From positions 1 to 64,000 of the forward strand of contig JANQJK010000009.1 in NCBI GenBank assembly GCA_028281665.1: 64,000 nucleotides of DNA, in the 5' to 3' direction. Source of the stretch: Hyphococcus sp. GTDB lineage: Bacteria; Pseudomonadota; Alphaproteobacteria; Caulobacterales; Parvularculaceae. A program made the position numbers and the translations under genes. Below the pieces are notes generated by a model. That model made no database searches, had not been told where the DNA came from, and was given only the letters and a program-made list of their open reading frames with translations. The first letter of the stretch is position 1. Each line of letters begins with the position of its first letter. This document shows positions 7,860 through 33,336 of the stretch, one piece after another.

Positions 7860-9059
7860 ATGTCGATCGTCAAGTTGACCAAAACCATCATTCATGACGC
7901 TGAGCCGAAGGACACAGCTTATGAGCTTCGTGACACCGAAGTCAGGGGCTTTTTGTGCAAAATCAATCCTACTGGCACCAAATCGTTCTACCTCTCCTAC
8001 CGGACGCAGACCCGGCAGCGCCGAAAACTAAAGGTCGGCGATTATGGCGTCTACAAGGTCCAGGAAGCGCGAGAGATTGCGCGAAAATGGCTACAGGAAG
8101 TCCGCGAGGGCGGCGATCCCAGTCAGCGCCGCTCGGAAAAGCGCGATACGCCGACGCTCAGCTACCTCTGCGACCGCTTTATGCGCGACCATTCCGAGCT
8201 CTTCAACAAGCCCTCGACGCAGAGAGGCTACCAACAGCAAATTGCGCAGCGCATCGAACCCAGCATGGGCAAAATGCTGATCTCTGAAGTCTGCCGCGCC
8301 GACATCTTGAAGATGATGCGCGACAATGCTTATGCCCCAATACAGGCCAATCGCACGCTGGCTTTGCTTAAGAAAATGTTCAACTGTGCTGAGCTTTGGG
8401 GATTGCGCGAGGAAGGGACCAACCCCTGCCGGCTTGTCAAAATGTATCCGACCAAGCCAAAGACGCGTCTCCTTACAGACGCCGAAGTCAAAGCGATTTT
8501 CGAAGCGATGGAGACGATTGAATACGAACAGCGTATTCCATGGGTTTTCACACTGGCTTGTCGATTACAATTTGCCTTCGCTGCTCGGATCAATGAGATC
8601 CTGAACCTGGAATGGGCATGGGTGGATTTCGAAAAGGCTATCATCCGTTGGCCCGACTCGAAAACTGGCGTCATGGAGAAGTACATCGACCCTGACACGC
8701 TTCAGCTTTTGGAAGACGCCCCGTCACGGGATGCTTCGGACTATGTTTGTCCCGCTGTTACCGACGCCTGTCGACCGCTCAGTTGCGACGTCTATTACTC
8801 ATCTGGGTGGCGGCGAATCTTGGAGAAAGCAGGCGTGGAGCATTGCGGCACACACCATGTTCGCCACCGCGCAGCGACCGATATCGCCAATGCCGTCGAT
8901 AATGTCCGCACGGGTATGCAGATGACCGGCCACAAGACGGTGCAAATGTTCATGCGTTATGTGCATCCGGAAGAAAGTCGTATTCGTAAAGCACAGGCAA
9001 AAATTCGAAAATCAAGATTCTCGCTGTTGCAGGAGGACGCTGACTCTTCTCATAAGTAG
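7860..9059 (+). CDS. Tyrosine recombinase/integrase
   Basis: A site-specific recombinase of 399 residues, the usual size for island integrases of the P4/DUF4102 type. The N-terminal arm-binding part (about 1-90: ELRDTEVRGFLCKINPTG, then KLKVGDYGVYKVQEAR) is followed by a SAM-like core-binding domain and the catalytic domain. Catalytic residues visible are Arg243 (AARINEILNLEW), Lys268, His332 and Arg335 (THHVRHRAATD), His358 (MTGHKTVQMF) and Tyr367. All are present, so the enzyme looks intact. A GGGAGG precedes the ATG by 8 nt. It marks the left end of a region of mobile and defence-like genes. No tRNA or clear att repeat was seen next to it. Confidence 0.95.
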   Translation: MSIVKLTKTIIHDAEPKDTAYELRDTEVRGFLCKINPTGTKSFYLSYRTQTRQRRKLKVGDYGVYKVQEAREIARKWLQEVREGGDPSQRRSEKRDTPTLSYLCDRFMRDHSELFNKPSTQRGYQQQIAQRIEPSMGKMLISEVCRADILKMMRDNAYAPIQANRTLALLKKMFNCAELWGLREEGTNPCRLVKMYPTKPKTRLLTDAEVKAIFEAMETIEYEQRIPWVFTLACRLQFAFAARINEILNLEWAWVDFEKAIIRWPDSKTGVMEKYIDPDTLQLLEDAPSRDASDYVCPAVTDACRPLSCDVYYSSGWRRILEKAGVEHCGTHHVRHRAATDIANAVDNVRTGMQMTGHKTVQMFMRYVHPEESRIRKAQAKIRKSRFSLLQEDADSSHK

Positions 9060-9133
9060 CAGCATCGAGAAACCGTGTGGATGCGCACACTTCGATGCGT
9101 GCGAATTAATCGTGCGTCTGATACCCTGCTCAA

Positions 9134-12415: not shown

Positions 12416-12431
12416 TTGCGGTCCCGAATGT

Positions 12432-13677: not shown

Positions 13678-13759
13678 ATCATCCTCGTACGCCCCGGACC
13701 CGTCTCTGCATTGCATGCGCCCGGGGTTCAGCTTTTTTAGGCCCCAAATTCCCTGTGAC

Positions 13760-14281: not shown

Positions 14282-14529
14282 GGTACAAGTCCTCTTTGTT
14301 GGCTTGCATATTTGCAGCAAATACAAAGAGTTCAAGGATAGGCCACCAGACAATTTTGTCTTATCGCTCTGGACATGAATGTCACCACGCTCCAGTCGGG
14401 AATGTCCGCTAAATAAGGACGCATCATTTCAGGACCCGTTATCGACTACGAACGAGTAGTCATAACGTCCGGACACAGATGTCCGGAGGGGTCAAAGATT
14501 TCGGCAAAAGAGAACACCGCCAGGCGCGA

Positions 14530-14835: not shown

Positions 14836-15271
14836 GGGTCAGCCCTCCTTTTCAGTTGCGTGAAGTTGTTTGCGCGCGCGTCTGAACGCGGCGTCGCCAT
14901 TCAGAAAGTCACATACAGACGGTTTTCATTCCCCAAAGCGGTTGCGCCAGGACCGCCCGGTGCGACAACGGTCTGCCGGCCCCCTGCCTGCCTGGGGAAA
15001 TGAAAAACAAGTTGGCGCGCCAGCGCCGTCCGCTTATGTGCTGAAAGACAATTTCAGTCGCTTAGAGACTGACCAACCGATGCGGCCGAGCGATCGTCAC
15101 CGAATGGCTGAGACAGCGCCGCTGGCTCAGGCGCGAACCGAAGGACGAGCGCTAGAGCGCGGTCGCGTCAGCGACGGCCCAATACTGTCCGTCAAAACCT
15201 GAAACAGATTCGAACGCAGAATCGCGGTAGTCATACCAATCCACATTCATCTAATTTCGGAAGGCGAGAAA
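14836..15271. other. Intergenic region without a supported gene
   Basis: About 435 bp between divergent genes. A 110-codon plus-strand frame crosses it, but its composition is unlike a protein and has no domain. It probably contains the promoters for the DUF736 gene and the CoiA-like gene. Confidence 0.5.
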
Positions 15272-16077
15272 ATGCTTGTCGCCAGTCTTCACGGCGTGCG
15301 AATTGAAGCCGAAGCGGCGACGCGCGGCGAAGATTACCGCTGCCCGAATTGCAATGGCGAATTGATCCTGAAACAGGGGCGAAAAGTCATTCACCATTTC
15401 GCCCATAAGCCGCCGACCGATTGCACCTGGGCGAGCGGGGAAACACGGGCGCATCGCGACGCGAAAAAACTTGTGGCGGAAGGATTAAGGCGGCGCGGTC
15501 TCACCGCCGAAATCGAACATGTCGTGGCGACGCTGACCGGCGACCGACACGCGGATGTGATGGCCTGGTCTGAAACCGGTCAAAGCCTTGCCTTCGAACT
15601 TCAGCATACGTCCATTTCCCTCGATGAAATCGAACAGCGCGCTTCCTCTCTTATGCACGCGCGGGGATCGCCCAGTTTTGGATTCCATTTCTGCGACCGG
15701 CGGTTTGGACGGACGGCGAGTGGCATGATGAGAAGACCTGGTTCGTGGAACGATATTCTGCGCGCCCCTTTGAGCGATGGGTGCACGGGATGGGTGGCAA
15801 AAATGGAATGTGGATGTACGCCCCAAAGGCACAGCGTTTCTGGCTGGCGCGCCTGGAAGGCCATCAAATCTATGTTGAATCATCGAGCTGGTATTCGCAA
15901 GACGGCGAAGAGCAAAGCGCCGGCGGGTATTATAAATGGTTTAAACGCTACAGGGAATTGACCTTGACCGGTCCTTACACAATCGATCAGTTAAATCTGA
16001 CGGTCTCCCGGCGCACGGCCTTTCGTTCCGCAGGTTATAATTGGCCGGCGGGACGCGTCGGGCGCTTCGTTGCTTAA
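15272..16077 (+). pseudogene. CoiA-like nuclease-domain gene, frameshifted
   Basis: The N-terminal 125 residues resemble CoiA-type proteins: a Cys pair (CPNCNGELILKQG), HHFAHK, then the nuclease segment TAEIEHV...DRHADVMA...AFELQHTSIS with the acidic and Gln residues of a PD-(D/E)xK core. After 15650 the family continuation (YARAGIAQFWIPFL, then ERYSARPFERWVHGMGG) lies in another frame and runs to 16077. The switch falls in the short CT repeat CCTCTCTT (15645-15652); the span is 806 nt, two more than a multiple of three, which fits one extra CT. The GGAAGG before the ATG shows it was once translated. Either slippage has broken the gene or the base call is wrong. Confidence 0.75.
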
Positions 16078-16213
16078 AACGTGTGGGTCTTTTCCGGAAC
16101 GCAGAGCCAATTGCGAAACCTGCTTTTACCGGCAAAACTGAAAAATGCCGGTAAAAACGCGAAGGTCATTTTGCCCAAATGCAGCGATCCGCTAACATTT
16201 ATTGGCGCGTTGC

Positions 16214-17167
16214 CTAAAGCAGGAGCGCATTTACTGTTGGATTCGGATCGCTACAGCGCGCGTCGAGCACATCTATCAGACAGCTCCGAAATCGCTGCGC
16301 TTTGTCTCTAAGAGTAGCGAAAGCTTCAGTGTTTTCTCCCGCCGGCGACGGTTGCGATAAGGCGGATCTGACGGCTTCGTCGTCTAATCCGGATAAGAAT
16401 TCCGAATAGAGCTCAAGCGCGGGGACAGCGCGCGCCTCAACGATTTGATGGACGCGCTCATATGCGGGAACGCTCAACAGTGTTTCGAGCTTTTCAATCT
16501 TCTGATCTCGCTCAAGCTCGAATGTTTCACTCACGGCAAGTACGCCCGCCACAAACAGCATCATGCGAGAGAAACGCAGTTTGATTAGGCGTATGGCGCG
16601 ATCTTTGTTCTCTTTCTGCACCTTGTGTTCGAAATCCACACAGATCGTTCGCCAGTAACGGATGATGTCATTCAGCAGAAAAAGGCAGATCTGATCGGCC
16701 CTAATGTCTTTGGGGACATATTGTGAGAGCAACCGTGTGCGCGTCTCGTGAAAGTCCGCCTCATTATGAACCCACTCGCCTTCGAGCAATAACAACATTC
16801 GCCGCGTGATCTGCTTGTTATTGTCTTCCTGTCCGCCAATGGTCTGGCTCAATGCGCTGACGGACAATGGAGCGTCAAACACGCCGCCTTTAGCAGGCAT
16901 GTCAAATCCGGCAGACTTTAAGCGTTCGCGAAACATGGACTGTTTTTCCGCGACATCGCTCAATTCGGACCTGTCGAAGAGAAAAAAGAGATCGACATCG
17001 GACCCTTGCGTCACTTCACGCCGAGCATAGCTCCCGTTCACGCCAATGATGATGCTGTCATCGCCGGGAAAAGCATCGCTCGCCAATTGCCGCATTTCAG
17101 AAAGCCCGGTTTCGGATTGCTCGCGCGCCTTATCAAACATCGACTGTGCCGCGGACGATAGGGTCAT
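16214..17167 (-). CDS. DUF294-like nucleotidyltransferase
   Basis: A 317-residue protein with a nucleotidyltransferase fold: GVNGSYARREVTQGSDVDLFFL contains the G-S motif and the D-x-D metal pair, near residues 43-63. The rest is helical and resembles the DUF294/GlnD-associated arrangement. It could transfer a nucleotide to a protein, RNA or small molecule; the substrate is unknown. Its start overlaps the stop of the HD gene by 4 bp, so it is the last gene of a coupled set with HD, TcmP and DUF5131. A nucleotidyltransferase next to an HD phosphohydrolase suggests making and breaking, or adding and removing, a nucleotide. Confidence 0.8.
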   Translation of the reverse strand: MTLSSAAQSMFDKAREQSETGLSEMRQLASDAFPGDDSIIIGVNGSYARREVTQGSDVDLFFLFDRSELSDVAEKQSMFRERLKSAGFDMPAKGGVFDAPLSVSALSQTIGGQEDNNKQITRRMLLLLEGEWVHNEADFHETRTRLLSQYVPKDIRADQICLFLLNDIIRYWRTICVDFEHKVQKENKDRAIRLIKLRFSRMMLFVAGVLAVSETFELERDQKIEKLETLLSVPAYERVHQIVEARAVPALELYSEFLSGLDDEAVRSALSQPSPAGENTEAFATLRDKAQRFRSCLIDVLDARCSDPNPTVNALLL

Positions 17168-18282
17168 GCGCAGACAGTTTCCAATTCCCGTTGCGATGTC
17201 ACGAGCTGGCCGATGGTGATATCCCGGAAAGACTTCTGCTGCTGGTAGCGACGCGATAAATCGGCGGGCCGATGCATCTGAACATCAGAATTCACAGTGA
17301 ACTCCCGTTTGGGAGCGCGAAGTGAGAAATCCAGGACTTCGGGAACCATTTCCGACACGCGATAATAGGCCCGGCGCTGCGAGGTTTTCGCCCAGGCAAA
17401 GATATGAAACAGCGTCGGTTGTTTGTGACGGAGCTGATCTTCCGTTTTCAGAAAATCATCAGACGAAAATTCATCGATGTTATGATGCATATAGGCTTGA
17501 GCGAGGCCGTCAAAAATAAGTCCCCACGCGTTATGAATGACAAGGTTATAAACCTCATGCTTCATGCGCCAGAACTCATCCATTAAAGACGTCGGTAATT
17601 CTTCGTTTTCCGCGAGCGCCACAACAAGCCGACGCGGGTCAACAATACGATGACTCTTAGCGGCAAATACACGCGAGCGGCTAATCCCTTCAATTGTGTC
17701 CAAGTTTATTGGGCTTGAAAACAAATAAGCATGTTCGCCATCATGTTGTCCCTCGATCATCGCCGCAACTTCATCGAGATCAATGCCGTATGCCGACAAG
17801 ACTTCGATGATTTCATTTCCAAACGGCGAACGGCCATAAAGAATGTTGTCGCCCGAGCGATGGTGCGAAATGTCGAATTCAGATTTGAAGATCGGCTCTA
17901 ATGTGTGCGAAAGCGGCCCATGCCCAATGTCATGCAAAAGACCGGCGGCCGCGAGGATACGCGTCTCTTTTCGGTTAAGGCCCCGAATGTCTGCATATAA
18001 CAGCGCCAACTCCGCAACACCGACAGAGTGTTCGTAGCGGTTGTGCCGTCTGCGATGTGATTGAAAGCCGTTGGAAAACCGCACATAGTCCAAGGCGCCA
18101 AGGAAACCGATCTGCTTTAGGCGCTGCAACGGCGCGGTCAAAGCGAGCTCGGCAAGAAAGGGATCTTCAAAAATTTCGCCATCGTCTTGTTCGAAATGTC
18201 GCGGGCATGGCGGCAGATCTGGAAACAAGGGAAGCGTATCCCAGTCCGATCTCTCTTCCGCAATGAACGCGATTCGGTTCAT
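17164..18282 (-). CDS. HD-domain phosphohydrolase (dNTPase/SAMHD1-like)
   Basis: A 372-residue HD protein. The metal ligands are visible: His in RRHNRYEHSVGVAELA, the HD pair in GLLHDIGHGPLSHTLE, and a distal Asp in SSPINLDTIEG. The layout resembles dGTPase/SAMHD1-like phosphohydrolases, which remove triphosphate from deoxynucleotides, and several members are anti-phage. It overlaps the nucleotidyltransferase start by 4 bp and begins 69 bp after the TcmP stop. A role in nucleotide depletion or in removing a nucleotide added by its neighbour is inference. Confidence 0.85.
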   Translation of the reverse strand: MNRIAFIAEERSDWDTLPLFPDLPPCPRHFEQDDGEIFEDPFLAELALTAPLQRLKQIGFLGALDYVRFSNGFQSHRRRHNRYEHSVGVAELALLYADIRGLNRKETRILAAAGLLHDIGHGPLSHTLEPIFKSEFDISHHRSGDNILYGRSPFGNEIIEVLSAYGIDLDEVAAMIEGQHDGEHAYLFSSPINLDTIEGISRSRVFAAKSHRIVDPRRLVVALAENEELPTSLMDEFWRMKHEVYNLVIHNAWGLIFDGLAQAYMHHNIDEFSSDDFLKTEDQLRHKQPTLFHIFAWAKTSQRRAYYRVSEMVPEVLDFSLRAPKREFTVNSDVQMHRPADLSRRYQQQKSFRDITIGQLVTSQRELETVCA

Positions 18283-18351
18283 CCTCGTTTGGCCCTTGTA
18301 TTTCCTAGGTTATTTCCCGAATTCTTCAGCATAGCATATGCTACTAATTCC

Positions 18352-19638
18352 TCAATTATTCGTTTCACCCATTGGCCCAAACGGCCCGAAAAGAGTGGGT
18401 TGGCGCGCAAGCACAATCCGATCGGACCAACTCATCGTCTGGGCGCGTGGTTTGTCCTTGCCATATGCATCTTCAATGCGAAGCTCTCCCAGCTCCCGCA
18501 ATTCCACCAACACCTCTTCGAACAGCTCTCGCGTCACCGGCGTATCATTGCATTCGCGTCCAAAAAGTTGCTCCAGCGATGGCGCAAGGTCTGCGTCGAC
18601 GCCATCGCGAATGATTCGCGGAATCTGATCCTGCAGCACCTGCTTCGAAAGCGTTTTTGCATGGTCGTCGAATTCATAGCCAAGCGACAATTGTCGAGGG
18701 TCAGCCCCTTTTGAAAATCCGAGCGCCTGCAATCCAGCGCCCCCATGATGTAGAGAGATATTGTTCTCTTCCCAGTGAATATTGCCGATGACGTTTCGCG
18801 CCTCGCGGTGGCGAGAAAGGTGGATGAACCAATAGCTGCGATGGGCGTCTGGAGAACGAATAAAGAAGGGAGAATAATACTCTGCGCTCGTTGCGCTTTT
18901 AATATGACGATACAGACTATTCTGAATGAGCGTGCGCCAGCCGCCGCTTTCTTCCTTTTTCGAGAGAAGCGCTTTTACGAAATCCGGGTCTGCATCAATG
19001 TCGTTATAGTCTCTCCGCTTCAAATGCTCTTCACTCATATAATCGATCAGACCGTCCACGCTGAACGTCAGAAAGATTTCCGCCTTTTCCAGCTCACCCA
19101 GGATCGCTCGCATGGAGCGGAACGCGACCTGACTCCACCCATATTGATCGAGCAGAAACAAAGACCGCCCCTTTTGCGGTGATCGCCTTTTGACGAGCGC
19201 GATCGCATCCGAAACGCGGTCATTGAAATCGTCGGTCCAGATATGGATCGTATCATCAAGCATGTCCTTGAACGGGGATTGCTCAATTTCTGCACGAAGA
19301 AATTCTGTATGACGGCGATTAAGGTCTACGAAAAGAAAGTCAGTGCGAATTTCGAACCCTTTTGGACGGGCGCGGTTCAACTGATCCTGCATCTCGGCGA
19401 TCGCTTCCAGCAGAATAATCGGGGAACCTGCAACTTCCCCGTCATTGAAACGGTATCGTCCGCCTCCGGCATACCCATCTACAATTGTAAGGTTTAAGCG
19501 TTCCTGCACGGGCGTAGCGGTGCAGATTTCGATATAGCGCCGTAAATACCGGTCCAATATCCGGTGTTTCGCCAAACTGTGTTCGCCAATTAGCGGCGGC
19601 GGTTCGCCCAATCTCCACTCATAGTGTTTTTTCGCCAT
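18352..19638 (-). CDS. tcmP: Three-Cys-motif partner protein TcmP
   Basis: A 428-residue protein recognisable as TcmP, a family named for its constant pairing with the phage Gp37/Gp68-type three-Cys protein. The start is typical (EHSLAKHRILDRYLRRYIEI). NLTIVDGYAGGGRYRF at about 48-63 resembles a methyltransferase nucleotide loop, FLFVDLNRRH an acidic strand-2 site and LFLLDQYGWSQV a catalytic-strand motif, so a Rossmann methyltransferase-like fold is plausible. The partner DUF5131 gene ends 8 bp upstream, the expected arrangement. The biochemical role of the family is not known to me. Confidence 0.88.
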   Translation of the reverse strand: MAKKHYEWRLGEPPPLIGEHSLAKHRILDRYLRRYIEICTATPVQERLNLTIVDGYAGGGRYRFNDGEVAGSPIILLEAIAEMQDQLNRARPKGFEIRTDFLFVDLNRRHTEFLRAEIEQSPFKDMLDDTIHIWTDDFNDRVSDAIALVKRRSPQKGRSLFLLDQYGWSQVAFRSMRAILGELEKAEIFLTFSVDGLIDYMSEEHLKRRDYNDIDADPDFVKALLSKKEESGGWRTLIQNSLYRHIKSATSAEYYSPFFIRSPDAHRSYWFIHLSRHREARNVIGNIHWEENNISLHHGGAGLQALGFSKGADPRQLSLGYEFDDHAKTLSKQVLQDQIPRIIRDGVDADLAPSLEQLFGRECNDTPVTRELFEEVLVELRELGELRIEDAYGKDKPRAQTMSWSDRIVLARQPTLFGPFGPMGETNN

Positions 19639-19646
19639 ACCACTCC

Positions 19647-20384
19647 TTACTGCAACTCCGGCATGGCGTCATGAACGGCGCCGTCAAGCAGCCGACCATT
19701 GTGCCCTTTGGCGCGCCTTAGGCCGTCATCGCCATGCGCGCCCCATTGCTTAAAAAAGAAGGCGACATTGTCTTTCGCACACTGATCACGAACTTTCCGC
19801 GCCCAGCTGGGGTTCATCGGTCGCGCTTTCACACCTGACTCGCCGCCGACAATCACCCAATGAATGCCATCAAGGTTGAGATCGCCCACATCTTCCAGAA
19901 GCGGTTCAACCGATAAGAAACGTACTTTTGCGTCGATGGATTGCAGGGGTGCGATACGGGGAACACCATAACGCTTGTCTTCAACCGTTACGCCAAGCCA
20001 CGCGTTATGAGGTACGGGCCGTTTGGAAAAATATTTGGCCATAACCTTCGGACGCTTGGTGAGGATCTGATAAATGTGCTGCGGGGTCTCAGCGATGGTC
20101 TCCATCACCTGATCCACATAGGCGAACGGCACCTTGTCGTGGAACAGATCGCTCATCGAGTTCACAAACCAGATGGTCGGCGTTTTACGGCGCTTTGGCT
20201 GCTCCAGGCGCTCAGGAAGAAGACTGACAGCGAACCCGTTATCGTAGCCTTTCGTCCCCATCGCTTGCAGGCGCTTGGCCAGCGTTTCCGCATAACAGAA
20301 CTTGCACCCGGGCGAGACCTTTGTGCAGCCCGTGACCGGATTCCAGGTCATTTCCGTCCATTCGATATGAGACTTTCCAGCCAT
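19647..20384 (-). CDS. DUF5131 three-Cys protein (phage Gp37/Gp68 family)
   Basis: A 245-residue protein that begins with the family signature IEWTEMTWNPVTGCTKVSPG and CKFCYAETLAKRL. The cysteines form C-x6-C-x2-C, reminiscent of an iron-sulfur or radical-SAM-like site but not the classic C-x3-C-x2-C. VNSMSDLFHDKVP, LTKRP and VIVGGESG segments are also typical. The family occurs in phages and islands. It is the first gene of the set DUF5131-TcmP-HD-nucleotidyltransferase, with an untranslated region of about 400 bp upstream that must hold the promoter. Confidence 0.88.
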   Translation of the reverse strand: MAGKSHIEWTEMTWNPVTGCTKVSPGCKFCYAETLAKRLQAMGTKGYDNGFAVSLLPERLEQPKRRKTPTIWFVNSMSDLFHDKVPFAYVDQVMETIAETPQHIYQILTKRPKVMAKYFSKRPVPHNAWLGVTVEDKRYGVPRIAPLQSIDAKVRFLSVEPLLEDVGDLNLDGIHWVIVGGESGVKARPMNPSWARKVRDQCAKDNVAFFFKQWGAHGDDGLRRAKGHNGRLLDGAVHDAMPELQ

Positions 20385-24421: not shown

Positions 24422-25470
24422 AGACGGAGTTTGAAAAAGGCAAACTAGAGACGCCGGAAGAATGGGCGGCGTTCTGGTATCTGCGCGTTTCTTCGGACGA
24501 GTGCACGCCTGAAGACCGCTATGAATTCGAGGCCTGGAAGCGGGAAGCGCCAGAGAATGCCGCCGCTTATGAAAAAGTCGTGCGCGGCAGCGCCTTTATC
24601 GACCGCCATGTCGCCGAGCCCGCCATGCGCAGGCTTGGCAAGGAAACACTAACGCGAACCGCCCGCCCGCTTCATCGCAAGCGCTGGGCGCAGCTTACCG
24701 CCCTCGCCGCCAGTGTTGTTCTTGCAGTTGGCGTCGGCCTAATTGCATCTATCGACCAAAACCCAACGTCCATCGCCATATTAGCTGAAGTCGAATCTTA
24801 CGAAACCGCTATCGGCGAGCGCTCGACAGTTACCCTGTCTGATGGGAGCACGGTGACGCTCAACACCAACTCTCGCATTGAAGTCGCCTTTTCCGCGCAG
24901 GAACGCAATGTCCGGTTGATGCGCGGTCAAGGCTTCTTCGATGTTCACGAAGATGCGGACCGTCCCTTCGCAGTTGAAGCTGGCGACAAACGTGTTGTCG
25001 CCCTCGGAACTGCGTTTGATGTGCGCTTCGATGAAGGCAACGATGTTCAGGTGACGCTAGTAGAAGGCCGGGTTTCCGTCGGCGAAGTCATCCGCACCGC
25101 GACAAACGTTGCCGCCGTTTCCGCTCCCAAACCTAAGCCGATAGCTGAGTTGGTTCCGGGTCAACGACTGGTCGCCAGACACGACGCAGCGCCGGAAGTC
25201 ATCGAAACCAATGCTGAAGAAGCAACGTCGTGGCGCGAGGGTCGATTGATTTTCCGCGGCGAACCGATTGGCGATGTCATCGAAGAAATGAATCGCTACA
25301 GCGCGCAAAAACTCAAATTATCAAACGACCCACGCCTCCAGGAAATGCGGGTCAGTGGTGTATTCAACACTGGCCGCGCCTCAACCTTCGTGGACGCTTT
25401 AGAACGTATGCACCCTCTCGAAGCGACACGCAGCGGTTCCAATGAGCTGACGCTGGTGTGGCAAGAATAA
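24418..25470 (+). CDS. FecR-family anti-sigma regulator
   Basis: A 350-residue inner-membrane regulator. An N-terminal DUF4880-type segment (EEWAAFWYLRVSSDECTPED, then FEAWKREAPENAAAYEKV) contacts the sigma factor; a single membrane helix lies at about 97-116 (AQLTALAASVVLAVGVGLIA); the periplasmic FecR domain follows (SDGSTVTLNTNSRIEVAF, FFDVHEDADRPFAVEAGDKRV, GTAFDVRF). It receives the signal from the STN domain of the receptor and controls the sigma factor encoded just before it, with which it overlaps by 4 bp. Confidence 0.93.
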   Translation: MKTEFEKGKLETPEEWAAFWYLRVSSDECTPEDRYEFEAWKREAPENAAAYEKVVRGSAFIDRHVAEPAMRRLGKETLTRTARPLHRKRWAQLTALAASVVLAVGVGLIASIDQNPTSIAILAEVESYETAIGERSTVTLSDGSTVTLNTNSRIEVAFSAQERNVRLMRGQGFFDVHEDADRPFAVEAGDKRVVALGTAFDVRFDEGNDVQVTLVEGRVSVGEVIRTATNVAAVSAPKPKPIAELVPGQRLVARHDAAPEVIETNAEEATSWREGRLIFRGEPIGDVIEEMNRYSAQKLKLSNDPRLQEMRVSGVFNTGRASTFVDALERMHPLEATRSGSNELTLVWQE

Positions 25471-25608
25471 CACAATTGTCATCATGCCGACAAAAAACTG
25501 AAACAAACGACTAAGACCTTCGCACATAGCCCACGTCTTCCAGACATCGAGCCCACAAACATCCGTGGGACAACGAACTGAAAGACGCCGTCGGGAGGGG
25601 CGAATTCC

Positions 25609-28338
25609 ATGATCAAATCAACAAAAGCGCTATCGCTGAAAGCCGTCATGCTCGCTAGTGCAGCTAGCTTCGCAGTCGCCGGTGCACATGCGCAGTCTGC
25701 TGACCAGCAAACCATCGAATTCGATATCGATGCGCAAGACCTCGGCGCCGCCCTCACTGAATTTGGCATTCAAAGCGGAAAGGAAGTCTATTTCGTCGAA
25801 GCCGATGTGAACGGCAAAACCACGAACGGCGTCGAAGGTCAGTTCACATCAGACCGAGCGATTACCATAATTCTTGCGGATGCTGGCGTGCCGCACACCT
25901 TCGACAATAACGGTACGGTACTCGTCGGAAACGAATACATACGTGAGGCCTCCCTGAGCGACGGAAAAACCCCGCAATCCTTTCGCGTGGCTCAATTGGA
26001 TCAGGAAGATGATTTACGGCGAGTAGAAACCGGTGACGAATTTACCGATGAGCGCGTCGAAGACACAATCGTCGTGACCGGAACTACTATTCGTGGCGTG
26101 TACCCTGACTCCGCGCCTTTGGAAGTGTACACCGCTGACGATATCGCGTTGAGCGGCGCGACGACGCTAAATCGGTTTTTGGAGACTCTTCCTCAAAATT
26201 TGAATAGTTCTGCATCGGGTTCTTTTGCCCTTTTGGGGGCAGGGGTTGGAGGCGATCCGACTGATGCGGGCGGAGTTGACTTGAGGGGGCTCGATGTCGG
26301 TACAACGCTAATACTTCTCAACGGCCGTCGTTTGACTTCTCCAGAAGGAGAGTCGCCGAATACTTCTCTGATTCCATTAGGTGCCATTGAGCGCGTAGAA
26401 GTTTTGACTGATGGTGCGTCGGCAATCTATGGATCCGATGCGATCGGAGGAGTCGTAAACTTTGTGTTGCGCGATGATTTCGACGGCGTCGATATCAATA
26501 CTTCCTACGGTACCGCGACACGCGGTGGACACGACAGAGCACAAGTCGACGCCGCTGCAGGAAAGTCTTGGGAAAGTGGGTCGGGATTTTTGTCTTTTAG
26601 CTACCTTACTCAGTCCGCGCTGGATGTGTCTGAGCGCGATTTCTCTTCCCAGGCCCCGTCTCCGCTGTCCTTGATCCCAGACGAGCGCGCGTACAATGTT
26701 ATGGGAGCCATCGATCAAAACTTTACCGACAAACTAAAAGTTTTCGGAAACGTACTTTACTCAATTCGAGAAGCGGAAGTAGGTACGTCGGCCGCAGCAA
26801 GCTTAGTGCAACTCCGCGAGAGCGACGATGAACAGTTATTTCTTGTGGGCGGCATAGAATATCAATTTGCCGAAGATCTATTTTTCCAAATTGATGCAAC
26901 GTATCTGGAGCGAGAGTATGAGACTCGACTGGACACGGTTGCGACAGGACAATTAAATGGAACTGTCGAAAACGGAGAATCTCTTGACCTTTTGGCTAAG
27001 TTAGATGGGAAACTATTTGAACTTCCCGGCGGGGATGCAAAGTTCTCGTTGGGCGGCGGTTACTCCGAACAGGACTTTAGAACGGCCGGAGGTGTAATTC
27101 CAAACCCGCCATTTGACTTTGATTTGGGTTTTAACCGGGATTCATATTTTGGATTTGCGGAAGCTTTTCTACCAATAATAGGTGAAGAGCAGGATATCCC
27201 AGGCGTTCATCGGTTGGAGGTGAGTGGGGCTGTTCGATATACAGACTACTCTGACTTTGGTAGCGCAGCGACACCAAGATTTGGCGTTCTGTGGGCTCCG
27301 ATTCAGGATGTCAAGTTGCGAGGTACTTATTCAAGAAGTTTCAGGGCGCCTACCTTGCGTGATTTAACGCCAGGTACATCATTTGCAAGAATTTTGCGAC
27401 TGTCCGATTTCGGACTACCGGATACCTTTTCCGATGATGGGTCAACGGTCTTGTTTCTCGCCAATGGACCGCGATTGAATGGACTAGAACCCGAGTTTTC
27501 TGATACTTATACTGTTGGTGTGGACTTTGAGCCCGTTGCTATCGAGAATCTAAAAATCTCAGCAACATATTACTCCATTGACTACACGGATAGGTTTGGA
27601 AGTCCCGTACCCAGTGCGACGGCTGCGCTATTTGATCAAGAAAACTTGGCGTTCTTGTTTAATACATCGCCAACCCAGCAAGACTTGCTATCCATTGCCT
27701 CCGAGATTCCTCAAGAACGTATTCTTGACCTCTCAGGAACACTGCCCCTCCCGATCGTTCCGCAAGATGTTGCAAATTTTGTCACAGTAATTTTTGATAA
27801 CCGTCAAGTGAACTTGGCCAGTGCGGCGACAGAAGGCGTGGATGTTTCATTGGATTACGGGCACGACAGCGCAGTGGGATATCTGAACTACGGAGTCCGG
27901 CTGAGCCACATTATCAATTCTACTCAACAAGCGTCTCCAAATGCTATCGATCGTTCCGTGATAGATTTTGTTAGTCGGCCTATTTCGCTCAAAGGTCGCG
28001 CGTATATCGGGATGAGCAATGGCGGGTTTTCTGGTCAACTCAACGTGAATTTTACCGATAGCTACACTAACATTGCTGCGGATCCCGAAGAACCAGTTGA
28101 TAGCTGGACAACGGTTGACTTAAATCTGAGGTATGCATTCGATGGTCGCCGTTCGCAGCTTTTGAAAGACACGGCCGTGTCGGTCAACATCAATAATTTG
28201 TTTGATACTGATCCGCCGAGTGTCGGCCCCGCCGAAGTCGGTGGCCTTGTTGGACTGGGGGTTCCCGCAGGATTCGATCCGGTAAACGCCAACCCTGTCG
28301 GTCGTTTCATCACATTTGGTCTGCGCAAACAGTTTTAG
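25609..28338 (+). CDS. TonB-dependent receptor with STN signalling domain
   Basis: A 909-residue outer-membrane receptor. Residues 1-29 are a signal peptide ending AHAQSAD. An STN domain (about 34-90: IEFDIDAQDLGAALTEFGIQ) talks to FecR. A TonB-box-like EDTIVVTGT starts at about 151 and the plug follows (GGVDLRGLDVGTTLILLNGR, then ERVEVLTDGASAIYGSDAIG). The rest is a 22-strand type barrel ending in the aromatic residue of GRFITFGLRKQF. It lies 138 bp after fecR. From about 26.2 kb the codon usage shifts to more A/T-ending codons than the N-terminal part, as if the plug-barrel came from another source. The ligand is probably a peptide or siderophore. Confidence 0.93.
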   Translation: MIKSTKALSLKAVMLASAASFAVAGAHAQSADQQTIEFDIDAQDLGAALTEFGIQSGKEVYFVEADVNGKTTNGVEGQFTSDRAITIILADAGVPHTFDNNGTVLVGNEYIREASLSDGKTPQSFRVAQLDQEDDLRRVETGDEFTDERVEDTIVVTGTTIRGVYPDSAPLEVYTADDIALSGATTLNRFLETLPQNLNSSASGSFALLGAGVGGDPTDAGGVDLRGLDVGTTLILLNGRRLTSPEGESPNTSLIPLGAIERVEVLTDGASAIYGSDAIGGVVNFVLRDDFDGVDINTSYGTATRGGHDRAQVDAAAGKSWESGSGFLSFSYLTQSALDVSERDFSSQAPSPLSLIPDERAYNVMGAIDQNFTDKLKVFGNVLYSIREAEVGTSAAASLVQLRESDDEQLFLVGGIEYQFAEDLFFQIDATYLEREYETRLDTVATGQLNGTVENGESLDLLAKLDGKLFELPGGDAKFSLGGGYSEQDFRTAGGVIPNPPFDFDLGFNRDSYFGFAEAFLPIIGEEQDIPGVHRLEVSGAVRYTDYSDFGSAATPRFGVLWAPIQDVKLRGTYSRSFRAPTLRDLTPGTSFARILRLSDFGLPDTFSDDGSTVLFLANGPRLNGLEPEFSDTYTVGVDFEPVAIENLKISATYYSIDYTDRFGSPVPSATAALFDQENLAFLFNTSPTQQDLLSIASEIPQERILDLSGTLPLPIVPQDVANFVTVIFDNRQVNLASAATEGVDVSLDYGHDSAVGYLNYGVRLSHIINSTQQASPNAIDRSVIDFVSRPISLKGRAYIGMSNGGFSGQLNVNFTDSYTNIAADPEEPVDSWTTVDLNLRYAFDGRRSQLLKDTAVSVNINNLFDTDPPSVGPAEVGGLVGLGVPAGFDPVNANPVGRFITFGLRKQF

Positions 28339-28441
28339 GTAGATCTTAGATCGGTCTGAAATGCCAACTTTCTCGTGCCGCACCTGGAATCGGAGATAAG
28401 AGCAGCGAGACAAAATAAAACATAGCAAGGGTGCCAACTAA

Positions 28442-30982
28442 GTGTCGTTTTCAGTTCACTCGCTTCTAGCGATAGCTTTTCTTTCTCTAGCGGCCTGCGC
28501 ATCGGTGAACTCCGCCGAACCGCGCGAAAAATTGACAGGCGGAGCTGAACCCGAGTTACCTGATGCGGCCGATCAAGTTGCCTCAGAGCGAACTAGGCGA
28601 TTTACAGTCGACGACTTACTAAAAATAGAACGGATTGGATCGGTTCGATTTAGCGCGGATGGCGATACGCTGGTATATGAGCATTTCGGTGCGCGCGCGG
28701 ACGGTACAGATTTTGGGCGTGGGATTAACTCAGGATCGAATTCGAGATTGTATTCGGTCGATCTAACTCGTTTTTCTGCACCACAAACGCTTTTTGCGCA
28801 GGCGCCGGGCGAGAGCTATTGGATTGATGGAATGCTTCCGGATGATCGAGGGGTAATTTACAATGTGTTATCCAAAGATGCAGGTTTTCGGAAAGGGATA
28901 GCGAAATTTGGCCAACGACACAGTAAAATTCTTGATGTCAATTCCGACCACTATGCGTTTTTAGCTTCGCCTTGGATATCAAATAAAATCGTAACTCCAC
29001 TCTTGGGTGAAGATCACGTACCAATGATCACTGGACTTCGTGCAGAGATGCGCGAAGACGTGATTGCGAGCTGGCGCGCACAAAGGCGTGGTAAGCAGCC
29101 TACTGCAAGCGTCATCGGCAGTGGCAAGTACGAGAGTTTTAAAGGACGCGGCGGCCAGCTTTCGCTAGTTGATCCAACCTCCGACGAGGTAACAATGTTG
29201 GCTCCGGGCGAATTTTGGATTCGCGTGGTGTCGCCAGACGGGCAATCGCTAGCCGCGCTGAGGCGTGATCGAGTCAAGCTAGATTCTTCCCAAGCGATGG
29301 ATAATGGAGCAAATTCAAGAGGGATAAAGAATACTCTACTGTTGTTCGAATTTGAGACTTCGAGCGAGCACTCCGTGATCGAACCGTGTCGAAGATGCGA
29401 CGTATTGAGCAGTTCGATCCGGTGGTCGAAGGATGGCAGGTTTCTATCTTTTGTTGCGAGGGAAGAGGGTGAGCCTTGGGATGCAGCAACATATCGAATA
29501 TATGATCGGGAAAATCGAAATACTCAAAACGTTGATTTAGGCGGATACAAAACGTTCTCAACGCGTGGCAACGCATCATTGGAATTCCCGTCGATTTGGC
29601 TCGATGACTCACTCGTCGTGCGCGCAATCCCCCCTACCCGTTCAGACACAGGAGCAACGTCGGATGTGCGATCCGATTGGTTTGTTATTGCGAACGGCGT
29701 ACCAAAAAACCTGACACGGGACTTCCAGGGCAATATACCGCAAGTGATTGCCTCAACCAGTGGGAAGTTGATTATGATTCATGACGGTAATGTGTGGGCC
29801 GTTTCCAACGAAGGAGATAAGCAAGACCTCACAACTCAAATCGATTCTGCAGTCACACACTGGAACGGACAATCGCGGCGTGACTACTTTGATCCCTATC
29901 AAGACATTCTTGTATTGGAGACAATTACAGAATCTGAGTTTAAGCAAAAGGCGGTGCTTTTTTTAGAGCTCGAAAACGGAACAATTGAACGTCTTAACGT
30001 CGGTCGGGAGACCGCCCGCATTGTAGCGGTATCACCTAAACATCGAAAGATAGCGACTTTGGAGAATGATCGTGGCGTTTCCAGATTGGCCGTAGTGGAT
30101 GCCAGCGAAACGGTGCGGGAAGTGCTCGAGATTAACTCTCACTTGGACGAAATAAGCCCTGCGATTCCGGTTCGGATGGATCACCTTGGGCCGAGTGGGG
30201 ACAAGCGGATTTCTTGGGTTGTTATGCCACCAGGGTGGAGTCCAGGAGATCCCCCAGTCCCCGCTATTGTTGATGTCTATCCGGGATACGCATTAGGTCG
30301 CAACTTTGCCAGTCAGATCGTCGACCTGGACGTTTCCGCCAGTCAACAAATTCTACCTGCGAATGGCTATGCCGTCCTATATCCAAGCTTTCCAGCACCC
30401 AGAGATGAAGTGCCGAGAGTTCCTATTGATCGTATAGTTGACGAAGTCTTCGTGGCGGTTGATCGGGCGATCGAGGAAGGACTCATTGATTCCGAAAGGT
30501 TAGCTGTGACAGGCTATAGTTTCGGAGGATATGCTGCGGCCGGGTTGGTTGGCTTCACTGATCGGTTCAAGGCTGCCGTTGCCCAGTCTGGTAAATACAA
30601 TCTGACAAGCGCGTACGGAGTGTTTGATGTAAGAGTTAGATTTTTGAACGAATATTATGGGCCGGATTACTCAGGAGCGGGATGGTCCGAGTCTGGTCAA
30701 GGAAGCTTAGGTCCGCCCGTTTGGCGGGATCCTGATCTGTATTGGCGCAATAGCCCTCTCGCCCACGTCGAAAATATATCCACACCAATTCTGATAACGC
30801 ATGGCGATTATGACTATTTAAGCATCACTCAAGCGGAAGAATTTTTCACCGGTCTCGCACGTTTAAACAAAGACGCCGTCTTCGTTCGCTATTGGGGCGA
30901 AGGTCATAGTATATCGTCACCTGCAAATATTCGAGACATGTGGGAGAGGATTTTGAATTGGTATGATCAACACCTAAACTGA
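28442..30982 (+). CDS. S9-family (prolyl oligopeptidase-like) lipoprotein peptidase, possible lasso-peptide isopeptidase
   Basis: An 846-residue predicted lipoprotein: the signal peptide ends in the lipobox LAACAS at about residue 19. The middle is a beta-propeller-like region and the C-terminal 270 residues are an alpha/beta hydrolase with the nucleophile in VTGYSFGGYAAAGL, Asp in THGDYDYL and His in WGEGHSISS, the S9 triad. It starts with GTG. Genes of this kind that follow FecI-FecR-TonB receptor sets include the Atxe2-type enzymes that hydrolyse imported lasso peptides; this is a possible function, not shown by motif. No lasso precursor or maturation genes were found in the window. Codon use is A/T-richer than the surrounding genome, like the receptor. 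Confidence 0.8.
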   Translation: MSFSVHSLLAIAFLSLAACASVNSAEPREKLTGGAEPELPDAADQVASERTRRFTVDDLLKIERIGSVRFSADGDTLVYEHFGARADGTDFGRGINSGSNSRLYSVDLTRFSAPQTLFAQAPGESYWIDGMLPDDRGVIYNVLSKDAGFRKGIAKFGQRHSKILDVNSDHYAFLASPWISNKIVTPLLGEDHVPMITGLRAEMREDVIASWRAQRRGKQPTASVIGSGKYESFKGRGGQLSLVDPTSDEVTMLAPGEFWIRVVSPDGQSLAALRRDRVKLDSSQAMDNGANSRGIKNTLLLFEFETSSEHSVIEPCRRCDVLSSSIRWSKDGRFLSFVAREEGEPWDAATYRIYDRENRNTQNVDLGGYKTFSTRGNASLEFPSIWLDDSLVVRAIPPTRSDTGATSDVRSDWFVIANGVPKNLTRDFQGNIPQVIASTSGKLIMIHDGNVWAVSNEGDKQDLTTQIDSAVTHWNGQSRRDYFDPYQDILVLETITESEFKQKAVLFLELENGTIERLNVGRETARIVAVSPKHRKIATLENDRGVSRLAVVDASETVREVLEINSHLDEISPAIPVRMDHLGPSGDKRISWVVMPPGWSPGDPPVPAIVDVYPGYALGRNFASQIVDLDVSASQQILPANGYAVLYPSFPAPRDEVPRVPIDRIVDEVFVAVDRAIEEGLIDSERLAVTGYSFGGYAAAGLVGFTDRFKAAVAQSGKYNLTSAYGVFDVRVRFLNEYYGPDYSGAGWSESGQGSLGPPVWRDPDLYWRNSPLAHVENISTPILITHGDYDYLSITQAEEFFTGLARLNKDAVFVRYWGEGHSISSPANIRDMWERILNWYDQHLN

Positions 30983-31385
30983 TGAATCGGGTCTTAGGTC
31001 CCCCCGTGTCGCCAACTTTTTTCAACTTTGATTGACGTCGAACAGTTTTGAAAACTTGCGAAGGATCGCACTGGAAACGCGCTTTTCGTCCGATCATTTG
31101 CGGCATGTTCCTCACCGATCGTTAATTGGAAGATGCTCTTCGCCGCACCGTGCGTACCATCGATCGGATTCACGCAGTCGCGATGCACTGACCGGAATTG
31201 CCCCGTCAATGAGCGAAATACATCGCGGCGAGAAATCTTATTTTCGTTCGATACAACGTTCCGCGAGCTTGAACGAAGCTCATGGTCACTATCGCAGACC
31301 TGCGCCTTTTGATCATTGGGTTTTTAGCGTGTTGTGAAAAATCAGGACAAACCTGATCCCTTATCGATTGAACCAAATCGAAAGT
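30983..31385. other. Intergenic region without a supported gene
   Basis: About 400 bp between the peptidase and the tRNA-Leu gene. Frames on both strands (for example 31032-31337 plus) have no domain and atypical composition. Nothing structured was recognised. Confidence 0.45.
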
Positions 31386-31715
31386 TGGTGCGGACGGCCG
31401 GACTTGAACCGGCACGGAGTTACCTCCGACAGATTTTCTTACCCGCTACGGTTTTCACCGCCGATGCCATGAGCACCGTTTGTGGTCTGGACTATCCCTT
31501 CATCATAGTCGGCGCGCCGACCTTAGATGCTGCCCGTCTAGTCTCTACACCTTCCGATCTAATTCGAAATTAGTTCGGCTTGGCTCGGGATTGGCGTGGG
31601 CAGATAACTCGCCTTTAGCTTTCCCCGAATTTGAGCAGTTCTACTCCCGTCGTTTCCGGCGGGGCACTCAAACGTGGTCTAAGTCTGTTGTGTCTACCAA
31701 TTCCACCACGCCCGC
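31386..31715 (-). tRNA. tRNA-Leu(UAA) interrupted by a group I intron
   Basis: Exon 1 is 31681-31715 (35 nt) and exon 2 is 31386-31437 (52 nt, CCA encoded). Joined they give an 87-nt tRNA: acceptor GCGGGCG against CGTCCGC (one G-U), D stem GTG/CAC, anticodon stem ACAGA/TCTGT with loop CTTAAAA (anticodon TAA), a long variable arm with stem GGAG/CTCC, and T arm GCCGG-TTCAAGT-CCGGC. The intron breaks the anticodon after position 34, the same site used by the tRNA-Leu(UAA) introns of cyanobacteria and plastids. All arms pair, so the gene should be functional after splicing. Confidence 0.92.
31438..31680 (-). ncRNA. Self-splicing group I intron (IC3-like) in tRNA-Leu(UAA)
   Basis: A 243-nt intron ending in the expected terminal G, with U as the last base of exon 1. 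P1 can be drawn as exon/intron ACUUAGA against UUUGAGU with the U-G pair at the splice site and loop CCACG. P3 is CTGCCC (31598-31603) with GGGCAG (31530-31535); P7 is GACTA (31539-31543) with TAGTC (31490-31494). These come in the group I order P3, P7, P3', P8, P7', forming the pseudoknot. The core words AGAGACTAGACGG and GGGATAGTCC resemble cyanobacterial tRNA-Leu introns. There is no homing endonuclease frame. Positions are plus-strand numbers for minus-strand RNA. Confidence 0.9.
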
Positions 31716-31860
31716 ATTTTCGATCATTTTGTATCTCTTGTGGCACCCAGCCGACACCCAGCGATGAAATCACTAAATAGTCTTGGCACCGATGATCTCT
31801 CCTAATTAGTTGCTTTTCCTCGTCTTTTTATCAGTTTGTGCCTGCGAAAAATAGCGCTTG

Positions 31861-31907
31861 CCGACAGATTTTAAGTCTGTTGCGTCTACCAGTTCCGCCA
31901 CGCCCGC
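31861..31907 (-). pseudogene. Truncated intronless 5' half of tRNA-Leu(UAA)
   Basis: 47 nt from the tRNA 5' end through the anticodon arm to CGG of the variable arm. The anticodon loop CTTAAAA is continuous, without an intron. It then breaks into unrelated sequence, with no T arm or 3' acceptor strand. Against exon 1 of the intact gene it differs at three bases; two of them are a paired D-stem change (GTG/CAC versus GCG/CGC). It lies 145 bp upstream of the intact gene and is a relic of a second tRNA-Leu(UAA). Confidence 0.8.
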
Positions 31908-31959: not shown

Positions 31960-33336
31960 TCAGCACTCGACCACGTTGACGGCGAGGCCGCCTTCGCTTG
32001 TCTCCTTATACTTTCTCGACATGTCGAGGCCGGTCTGGCGCATGGTCTCAATGACCTGATCGAGCGAGACTTTCGGGTTGTCGGCCGCCCGCATGGCGAG
32101 CCGGGCGGCGTTCACCGCCTTCACCGCGCCGATGGCGTTCCGTTCGATGCACGGGATTTGAACGAGCCCTTTGACCGGATCGCATGTGAGGCCGAGATTG
32201 TGCTCCATGGCGATTTCGGCTGCGCGCTCTACCTGGGCCGGGGTCGCGCCCCATACGGCGGCGAGCCCTGCGGCGGCCATGGAACAGGCGACGCCCACCT
32301 CGCCCTGACACCCCATTTCGGCGCCGGAAATCGATGCGCGCTGCTTATACAGCATCCCGACGCCGGCCGCCGTCGCCATAAAAGTCCGGATACGGTCTTC
32401 CTTGCCGTCGCCCTCGTCGCAATAATGCTTGACGACCGATGGAATAATGCCGGCCGCGCCGTTTGTCGGCGCCGTCACCACGCGCCCGCCCGCCGCATTC
32501 TCTTCATTCACGGCCATGGCGTAGACGTTGAGCCAGTCGAACAACTGCTCTCGCTCATTGGCGAGGGGCGCCTCGCGTAATTTGGCGTATAGCGCCGGCG
32601 CGCGCCTTTTTACCGCCAGCCCTCCGGGCAGCTCGCCGGCTGTTTTAAGGCCGCGCTCAATGCAGTCGCGCATCGCCGCCCAGATCGCATCAAGGCGCGC
32701 ATCGGTCTCGGCGCGGGGACGCATCGTGTCCTCATTGGCGAGAATGATCTCATGCAGTTGCATCCCCTGATCCCGGCAATGGGCCAGCAGCTCGGCAGCG
32801 GACGCAAAGGAGAAGCGCCCGGTTCGCGCCCGCGCGATCAGGTCGTCGTCCGATGTCTGGGCCAGTTGCTTTTCCGTCGCGATGAACCCGCCGCCGACGG
32901 AGTAATAAGTCTGCGCAAGGCACTCCTCGCCGTCGGCGCCAAAAAGCCGCAACGTCATTTCGTTGGGATGGATGCGCGGGATAATGTCGCCGCGAAAGTC
33001 CATATCGGTTGCGGGGTCGAAACCGATTTCGGGCCCGCCCGCGAGGCGCAACCGTTTTCTTTCCCTGACAAGGGCAAATGCGGCGTCCGCCTCATCGGGA
33101 TCGGTCCTGTCCGGTTCAAACCCCAGCAATCCAAGAATGGTCGCCTTGTCCGTGCCGTGGCCGATCCCCGTCAACGCCAGCGATCCGTGCAGGGAAATGT
33201 TGATGCGCGTCGCAGCGGCAAGGACGCCGGCGGCGTTCGCATCCGCCAGAAACCGGGCGCCGATCCGCATGGGACCGACCGTGTGGGAAGAGGACGGCCC
33301 GATGCCGATTTTGAATATGTCGAATATGCTCAGCAC
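31960..33336 (-). CDS. sdaA: L-serine dehydratase, single-chain iron-sulfur type
   Basis: Deaminates L-serine to pyruvate and ammonia in the cytosol with a 4Fe-4S cluster. The 458-residue protein fits the one-chain form: an N-terminal beta part ([20 protein letters not shown]) and a C-terminal alpha part with cluster cysteines in [14 protein letters not shown] and in [29 protein letters not shown] and the C-terminal [10 protein letters not shown] are typical. It follows the CinA-like gene by 31 bp on the same strand and may be co-transcribed. Its 3' end lies next to the tRNA-Leu relic. Confidence 0.95.

What the first reader, a model, noticed from the sequence alone, without database searches (positions are those of the whole stretch)
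31386..31715. Group I intron in a tRNA-Leu(UAA) gene of an alphaproteobacterium-like genome
The gene splits exactly between anticodon positions 34 and 35, as in cyanobacterial and plastid tRNA-Leu(UAA). The exons rejoin to a fully paired 87-nt tRNA with encoded CCA. The 243-nt intron has U before and G at its end, a P1 with U-G at the splice site, P3 and P7 that pair in group I order, and no endonuclease frame. Outside cyanobacteria and plastids, tRNA-Leu(UAA) introns of this type are uncommon to my knowledge, so transfer or deep inheritance is worth tracing.
Basis: partly seen in the sequence, partly recalled or inferred. Interest (0 to 1): 0.85.

Follow-up and report, generated by a model that had tools for sequence, protein, structure and literature searches.

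The report
Intron-locked spare tRNA in mobile islands
The split tRNA gene is real: it looks like a self-splicing-intron-containing spare copy of a leucine tRNA carried by mobile DNA that breaks the host's own copy on integration, and the intron sits exactly where that DNA's integrase would otherwise cut the spare.

Summary
In detail: 31386-31715 (minus strand) is a tRNA-Leu(UAA) gene split at U34|A35 by a 243-nt group I intron (RF00028 E 5e-11, just under the gathering score; covariation in 36 homologues). More interesting is what was missed: 145 nt upstream lies the 5' half of a second, intronless tRNA-Leu(UAA), at a synteny break. Relatives explain it. Integrative elements split tRNA-Leu genes within the 7-nt anticodon loop and carry a complete replacement tRNA-Leu. 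Among 80 loci of one integrase family, target and replacement anticodon agree in 44 of 44 parsed (3 of them cut off before exon 2). 36 of 38 UAA replacements behind the integrase carry this intron, inside the crossover sequence; 1 of 18 CAA replacements has an intron, and the 12 intronless CAA ones comparable with their target differ from it in the anticodon stem. So the gene is an element-borne rescue tRNA (strongly supported) and the intron probably hides it from the integrase (inferred; a passenger intron is the main rival). In the window's genome the element looks decayed: no 3' half was found and the integrase is not identified. An archaeal analogue is published (PMC3293823); ten text searches listed no bacterial one.

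The parts
31681..31715 (-). exon 1 of tRNA-Leu(UAA), to U34
   Evidence: ends GACTT as in all 36 order genomes
31438..31680 (-). group I intron, 243 nt, too short for an endonuclease gene
   Evidence: RF00028 47.2 bits, E 5.4e-11; covariation in 36 introns
31386..31437 (-). exon 2 of tRNA-Leu(UAA), from A35, with encoded CCA
31861..31907 (-). 5' half of a second, intronless tRNA-Leu(UAA) gene (the broken original); 47 nt, 98% identical to the intact gene of G023; its last nt (TCTGTCGG) may belong to the element end
   Evidence: Rfam tRNA model scores 31839-31907 at 31.1 bits
31869..31875 (-). CTTAAAA, anticodon loop of the broken gene = inferred 7-nt crossover
   Evidence: shared by the two ends of the complete elements in relatives
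31716..31860 (-). presumed inner end of the element between crossover and intron gene; repeated TGGGTGTC / TGGGTGCC at about 31731-31760 noticed by eye (possible integrase arm sites, weak)
   Evidence: similar layout in G278 and G333
31963..33336 (-). host L-serine dehydratase gene upstream of the broken tRNA, syntenic with intronless relative G023
   Evidence: Pfam SDH_alpha/SDH_beta; synteny
7860..9059 (+). P4-like tyrosine integrase; membership of the same element not shown
   Evidence: Pfam Phage_integrase, Arm-DNA-bind_3

Best explanation
The intron-containing tRNA-Leu(UAA) is a rescue gene carried by an integrative element. (1) The element's integrase recombines into the host's intronless tRNA-Leu(UAA), with strand exchange in the 7-nt anticodon loop CTTAAAA, so the gene is split into a 5' half and a distant 3' half (shown by both ends in relatives; in the window's genome only the 5' half is seen). 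(2) The element brings a complete tRNA-Leu(UAA) of its own, usually right behind the integrase, which takes over decoding of UUA (inferred from anticodon match and from the lack of another UAA gene found). (3) That copy holds a group I intron between U34 and A35, in the middle of the crossover sequence: RNA splicing restores the tRNA while the DNA no longer offers an attachment site, so the integrase spares the rescue copy and related elements cannot enter it (inferred). (4) After decay of the element the rescue gene stays as the cell's only tRNA-Leu(UAA), as here (inferred).
For: Window: 5' half of an intronless gene 192 nt upstream (start to start), same strand; G+C 0.504 in 25001-31860 against 0.613 in 31908-64000 (0.552 in 1-25000); synteny with G023 runs up to the broken gene (10 of 11 ORFs) and none of 9 ORFs beyond it is in the window. 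Order, 36 intron genomes: 14 have a 5' half ending in the anticodon loop upstream on the same contig, 3 more have a half elsewhere; both halves on one contig in 8 (G022, G078, G281, G292, G337, G210, G130, G333), about 4 to 90 kb apart. Genus control: of 22 genomes without the intron 19 have abutting halves (intact gene), 1 a 3' hit only, 2 none; none is split. Integrase of one family in 13 of 36, PHROG integrase in 4 of 4 tested. Best 80 of 512 integrase relatives (3 of them seem to be order genomes again, some are near-copies): 54 have a Leu 5' half just upstream, 44 of these also a rescue tRNA behind the integrase, anticodons agree in 44 of 44 (41 with both exons); the 5' acceptor strand differs between target and rescue in 36 of 45, so the rescue is foreign. 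Guard idea: intron in 36 of 38 UAA rescues; 12 of 12 comparable intronless CAA rescues differ from the target in nt 27-33; a CAA rescue (L229) has a group I intron in the same loop at U33|C34; in 8 loci target and intron-bearing rescue have the same 5' stem strand, so the intron is the only difference there (G000, G281, G210, L183, L213, and L199, L208, L224 whose intron genes lie elsewhere in the stretch).
Against: No splicing, integration or excision was observed. In the window's genome no 3' half was found and the integrase is not identified; the short layout there (also G278, G333) differs from the integrase-between layout. 19 of 36 order genomes show no broken UAA gene at the sensitivity used; G015 keeps an intact intronless tRNA-Leu(UAA) besides the intron gene. 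9 of 54 loci with a Leu 5' half have no rescue parsed behind the integrase (5 CAA, 4 UAA; in 3 of those 4 a complete intron-bearing tRNA-Leu(UAA) lies on the other strand 2.4-5.2 kb on). Two UAA rescues lack an intron (L192, L207). Most intron rescues also differ from the target in the stem (29 of 31). The UAA introns are alike throughout, so their tie to UAA may be common descent. Phage_integrase in Pfam stays below its cut-off for this family.
Confidence: 0.72

Rival explanations
1. Rescue cassette yes, guard no: the element carries a complete tRNA-Leu(UAA) to replace the broken gene, and the intron is a passenger because the cassette descends from an intron-bearing tRNA-Leu(UAA). The integrase avoids the copy because of stem changes.
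For: 17 of 18 CAA, 2 of 2 UAG and 2 of 38 UAA rescues have no intron; 29 of 31 UAA intron rescues (counting L174 and L182, cut off in the intron) also differ from the target by 1-3 of 7 nt; introns are alike across hosts.
Against: In 8 loci the 5' stem strand of target and rescue is the same, so the intron is the only visible difference there; a CAA rescue has a group I intron in the same loop at another position; stem differences are larger in intronless than in intron rescues (29 and 12 rows, Mann-Whitney p 4e-4, rows not independent).
Confidence: 0.3
2. Ordinary inherited intron in a housekeeping tRNA gene; the nearby fragment is an unrelated duplication remnant.
For: 19 of 36 order genomes show the intron gene with no broken UAA gene found; G010 has it at the usual site behind the serine dehydratase gene.
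Against: Recurrent split genes with one crossover, integrase next door, anticodon match 44 of 44; only 6 of 28 genus members have it; synteny break.
Confidence: 0.04
3. The intron spreads by itself (homing or reverse splicing) into tRNA-Leu(UAA) genes and elements pick it up by chance.
For: G010's exons resemble the host type at the native site; the rescues of L183 and L213 have 5' exons like the host's 5' half.
Against: Introns are 207-264 nt in 36 of 36, too short for an endonuclease gene; in 36 of 45 loci the rescue's acceptor strand differs from the host gene, so exons travel too.
Confidence: 0.06

Closest known systems
Archaeal tRNA-Thr(GGU) locus of Caldiarchaeum subterraneum (Sugahara 2012, PMC3293823; abstract, outline and first part of the Discussion read)
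   Same: 5' tRNA fragment, then a recombinase gene, then a complete intron-containing tRNA on the same strand; the authors propose that the element brings the intron and that this may prevent further invasion
   Different: One archaeal locus; extra intron at 24/25, of the protein-spliced archaeal kind by general knowledge; the tRNA is seen as restored from attP rather than as a separate replacement
Randau and Soll proposal that tRNA introns and split genes protect tRNA genes from integration (seen only as cited in passages of PMC3218864, PMC4390854, PMC4033280)
   Same: Intron or split as protection of a tRNA gene against integration
   Different: Proposed for archaeal host genes; here the intron copy belongs to the element and the intron is a group I ribozyme
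Group I introns of tRNA-Leu(UAA) in cyanobacteria and plastids (PMC4033280, passages)
   Same: Same tRNA and kind of intron; position 34|35 is recalled (the passage read gives 37/38 for most bacterial and plastid tRNA introns)
   Different: Described there as of ancestral origin; here the gene rides on integrative elements. Common ancestry not tested
Genomic islands in tRNA genes with anticodon-centred attachment sites (Islander, PMC4383910, passages)
   Same: Tyrosine integrase, crossover at the anticodon loop, tRNA fragment at the island end
   Different: There the island's att sequence restores the broken gene; here the gene stays broken and a separate complete tRNA replaces it
Group I introns in the T-loop of tmRNA genes (PMC11915505, passages)
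   Same: Ribozyme introns in a gene that islands use for integration
   Different: No link between intron and integrase in the passages read

Membership tests
Group I intron | Match to the group I covariance model over its full length | tested here: met
   47.2 bits, E 5.4e-11 in a 501-base search; below gathering 50; 7 of 20 loci scanned at or above gathering
Group I intron | U before the 5' splice site in a U-G pair of P1, G at the intron end | tested here: met
   36 of 36
Group I intron | Conserved core helices supported by covariation | tested here: met
   25 of 59 pairs with compensatory changes; P7-like pairs invariant; P3 not recovered by this method
Group I intron | Self-splicing activity | not testable with these tools
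   needs RNA
Integrative element in a tRNA gene (relatives) | Tyrosine integrase at the element end | tested here: met
   13 of 36 order genomes; PHROG integrase, E 1e-26 to 3e-36, in 4 of 4 tested; Pfam Phage_integrase below cut-off
Integrative element in a tRNA gene (relatives) | Target gene split with a short shared sequence at both ends | tested here: met
   8 cases on one contig, sequence common to all CTTAAAA
Integrative element in a tRNA gene (relatives) | Element restores the target gene from its att site | tested here: not met
   5' halves run into unrelated DNA in the loci; a few hold a mismatched or truncated 3' part (L177, L224, L236, L199, L208)
Integrative element in a tRNA gene (window) | Second end with the 3' half | tested here: not met
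   none found in the draft genome
Integrative element in a tRNA gene (window) | Integrase of the element | tested here: inconclusive
   a P4-like integrase at 7860-9059; 25% identical to G015's, whose family sits beside guaA
Cyanobacterial/plastid tRNA-Leu intron lineage | Common ancestry by tree | not tested
   no cyanobacterial intron was aligned

The most novel reading that the evidence does not exclude
A ribozyme is used as a site lock: a widespread family of bacterial integrative elements destroys a single-copy tRNA gene on entry, supplies a replacement, and keeps that replacement invisible to its own and rival integrases by placing a self-splicing intron in the 7-nt crossover. Such elements would also be the vehicle that spread tRNA-Leu introns through Alphaproteobacteria and Acidobacteria.
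Probability: 0.5. Interest if true: 0.9.

Novelty: new variant of a known kind. Interest (0 to 1): 0.8.

Why it matters
It gives a concrete, testable job to introns usually regarded as selfish or relic, and turns an archaeal proposal (introns shield tRNA genes from integration) into something that can be assayed in cultured bacteria. It also shows a second way to survive integration into an essential tRNA gene: bring a complete substitute rather than restore the old one, which would free the element from matching each host's acceptor stem. Practically, such genes are missed or mis-joined by a standard tRNA finder.

Tried and rejected
Host 3' half in the window's genome: none found. A gene that follows the tRNA in G023 lies on contig C22; homology to G023 there reaches to within about 100 nt of the tRNA, but there is no tRNA half, so the other end is rearranged or lost.

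G015's P4 integrase as the engine of the short-layout elements: rejected; 28 of the 30 relatives fetched (of 71 genomes with a match) lie beside guaA and only G015 itself has the intron gene. An att-like AATCTGTCGGC near 7.6 kb of the window was seen by eye (11-nt match), left open.

Complete hits elsewhere in G264, G281, G365, G321: tRNA-Leu(CAA), not UAA. G342's two distant pieces are halves of a split CAA gene, so not counted. Plasmid and phage collections: 4 plasmid records hold the integrase, the 3 looked at have no intron gene within the 7-kb stretch; no phage record at E 1e-20.

Literature: ten searches that ran; judged by listings and the passages named above, none reports intron-containing rescue tRNAs in bacterial integrative elements. 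Subscription papers and preprints are not covered.

Full report
What was checked. The gene at 31386-31715 (minus strand) is a tRNA-Leu(UAA) gene interrupted between U34 and A35 by a 243-nt intron. The intron matches the Rfam group I model over its full length (47.2 bits, E 5.4e-11, below the gathering score of 50). Of 20 loci scanned, the window's own among them, 7 pass gathering. An alignment of 36 introns of the order gives 59 consensus pairs, 25 with compensatory changes on both sides; the P1 U-G at the 5' splice site and the GACTA/TAGTC pairing are invariant; P3 is not recovered by that method. No other tRNA-Leu(UAA) gene was found in the 3.35-Mb draft genome: 42 matches to the tRNA model, the Leu ones being CAA, UAG, GAG and the fragment described next; two weak matches stayed unassigned. 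Since UUA is read by this tRNA (established knowledge), the gene is probably used and spliced; that is inference.

The neighbour. On the same strand, 145 nt upstream (192 nt start to start), lies the 5' part of a second, intronless tRNA-Leu(UAA): 31861-31907, 98% identical over 47 nt to the intact gene of genus-mate G023. It sits behind the serine dehydratase gene, as the intact gene does in G023. Right of it 10 of 11 G023 ORFs have a match in the window, out to about 43 kb; left of it none of 9 has. G+C is 0.613 right of it, 0.504 in the adjoining 25001-31860 and 0.552 in 1-25000 (profile). So the original gene is broken where foreign or rearranged DNA begins.

Relatives. In the genus 6 of 28 genomes have the intron gene; of the 22 without, 19 have an intact intronless gene (abutting halves), one gives a 3' hit only and two give none. 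In the order 36 of 398 sampled genomes have a homologous intron at E 1e-5, in tRNA-Leu(UAA) in 36 of 36, 207-264 nt. In G022 the host's intronless gene is split: the 5' half ends ...CAGACTTAAAA|CCCC and, 21.5 kb away, the 3' half begins AAGACTTAAAA|TCTG. Between them lie an integrase gene, the complete intron-containing tRNA-Leu(UAA), a relaxase, a type IV coupling protein, HipA, and MazG- and SLOG-domain genes (ten ORFs scanned), i.e. probably an integrative mobilizable element. Both halves lie on one contig also in G078, G281, G292, G337 (one contig), G210, G130 and G333. In all, 14 of 36 have the 5' half upstream on the same contig (11, G278 and G333, G198); G009 and G201 have a 3' half on another contig; G391 has a 5' half 0.73 Mb away. 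The other 19 show no broken UAA gene; G015 among them has an intact intronless one. In six cases (G022, G078, G281, G283, G264, G101) the 5' half lies 1444-1490 nt from the intron gene, room for one integrase gene. The sequence common to the junctions of the eight two-ended elements is CTTAAAA, the anticodon loop.

The integrase family. One family (53-87% identical to G022's among those found by blastp) is next to the intron gene or the 5' half in 13 of 36; PHROG calls it integrase in 4 of 4 tested, Pfam's Phage_integrase stays below its cut-off. A scan of one genome per species gave 512 relatives, of which the best 80 were kept; three seem to be order genomes again (L173, L177, L249) and some rows are near-copies, so the counts are not of independent events. 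In 54 of 80 a Leu 5' half ending in the anticodon loop lies 102-226 nt before the integrase match; in 10 a complete tRNA-Phe, -Met or -Arg lies there instead (the conventional mode). A tRNA-Leu follows the integrase in 58 of 80: 37 with an intron (36 UAA, one CAA; L174, L182, L183 end before exon 2 and L250's exon 1 was not parsed), 21 without (17 CAA, 2 UAA, 2 UAG). Target and replacement anticodon agree in 44 of 44 loci where both were read (31 UAA, 13 CAA; 41 with both exons). In 8 further loci (L192, L201, L205, L207, L218, L220, L222, L237) the loop sequence stands before the integrase without tRNA around it, like an unintegrated site, and by eye it again has the anticodon of the replacement. 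The one CAA replacement with an intron (L229, 51.1 bits) has it between U33 and C34. The 12 intronless CAA replacements that could be compared differ from their target in nt 27-33. Two UAA replacements (L192, L207) have no intron but a changed pair next to the loop. Of 9 loci with a 5' half and no replacement behind the integrase, three Rhizobiales (L199, L208, L224) have a complete intron-bearing tRNA-Leu(UAA) 2.4-5.2 kb on, on the other strand; five acidobacterial CAA loci and L236 show none in the stretch searched. On the integrase tree the intron-rescue state needs 13 changes, at least 6 forced by well supported branches, against 26.7 in shuffles, so rescue types seem to have been exchanged several times.

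Interpretation. Shown: elements split tRNA-Leu genes in the anticodon loop and carry a complete tRNA-Leu of the same anticodon. Strong inference: the carried copy replaces the broken one. Weaker inference: the intron protects it. For protection speak its position inside the 7-nt crossover, eight loci where target and replacement have the same 5' stem strand so that the intron is the only difference there (G000, G281, G210, L183, L213, L199, L208, L224), the separately placed intron of L229, and the stem changes in intronless replacements. Against it: like introns may simply come with the cassette, 29 of 31 intron replacements have a stem change too, and two UAA replacements do without.

The window's own case. 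Here the layout is short (5' half, 145 nt, intron gene) as in G278 and G333, whose introns are the closest outside the genus (83 and 80%). In G333 both ends are present: 3.7 kb with an AbiEi-like and a HipA-like gene and no recognised integrase, in a host whose broken gene (GCCGGCG...) is of another type than the carried one (GCGGACG...). In the window the second end was not found and the integrase at 7860-9059 cannot be tied to it. I read it as a decayed element whose rescue tRNA is now the only UAA gene.

Known work. The nearest precedent is archaeal (PMC3293823, abstract, outline and first part of the Discussion read): fragment, recombinase, intron-containing tRNA-Thr, with the proposal that the added intron may prevent further invasion. 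Reviews (passages: PMC3218864, PMC4390854, PMC4033280) cite Randau and Soll for the general idea. Islander (PMC4383910, passages) describes restoration of the target by the island. Ten searches listed no bacterial counterpart.

Noticed in passing
window 7860-20384: Block with a P4-like integrase, a NERD/NACHT-type ATPase, CoiA-like nuclease, HD-domain protein, GMT-like wHTH protein and DUF5131; looks like a cargo or defence region.
   Followed up: partly
L229:8460-8790: A tRNA-Leu(CAA) gene in an Acetobacteraceae MAG with a group I intron between U33 and C34 (51.1 bits, above gathering).
   Followed up: partly
L177, L224, L236 just before the integrase: The broken tRNA-Leu runs on into an element-borne 3' part with a mismatched acceptor stem, as if an older restoring att site had decayed after the element acquired a complete spare tRNA.
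   Followed up: no
L231, L241, L244, L245, L247: Acidobacterial elements that split tRNA-Leu(CAA) but show no replacement tRNA within 900 nt of the integrase; how the host copes is unknown.
   Followed up: no
L265, L266 (G342): Two halves of a split tRNA-Leu(CAA) on two contigs of a genome whose UAA gene has the intron: a second, CAA-type insertion.
   Followed up: no
L271-L300: A P4 integrase family that lies beside guaA in 28 of 30 loci fetched.
   Followed up: partly
G000:C18:82862 and G000:C2:90912: Two weak tRNA matches (36 and 33 bits) without a clear anticodon, and no tRNA-Leu(CAG) among the 42 matches of this genome.
   Followed up: no
G009:C42:8817-8973: Two adjacent tRNA-Leu-like pieces of unusual sequence in AT-rich surroundings; possibly contamination of this draft genome.
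   Followed up: no
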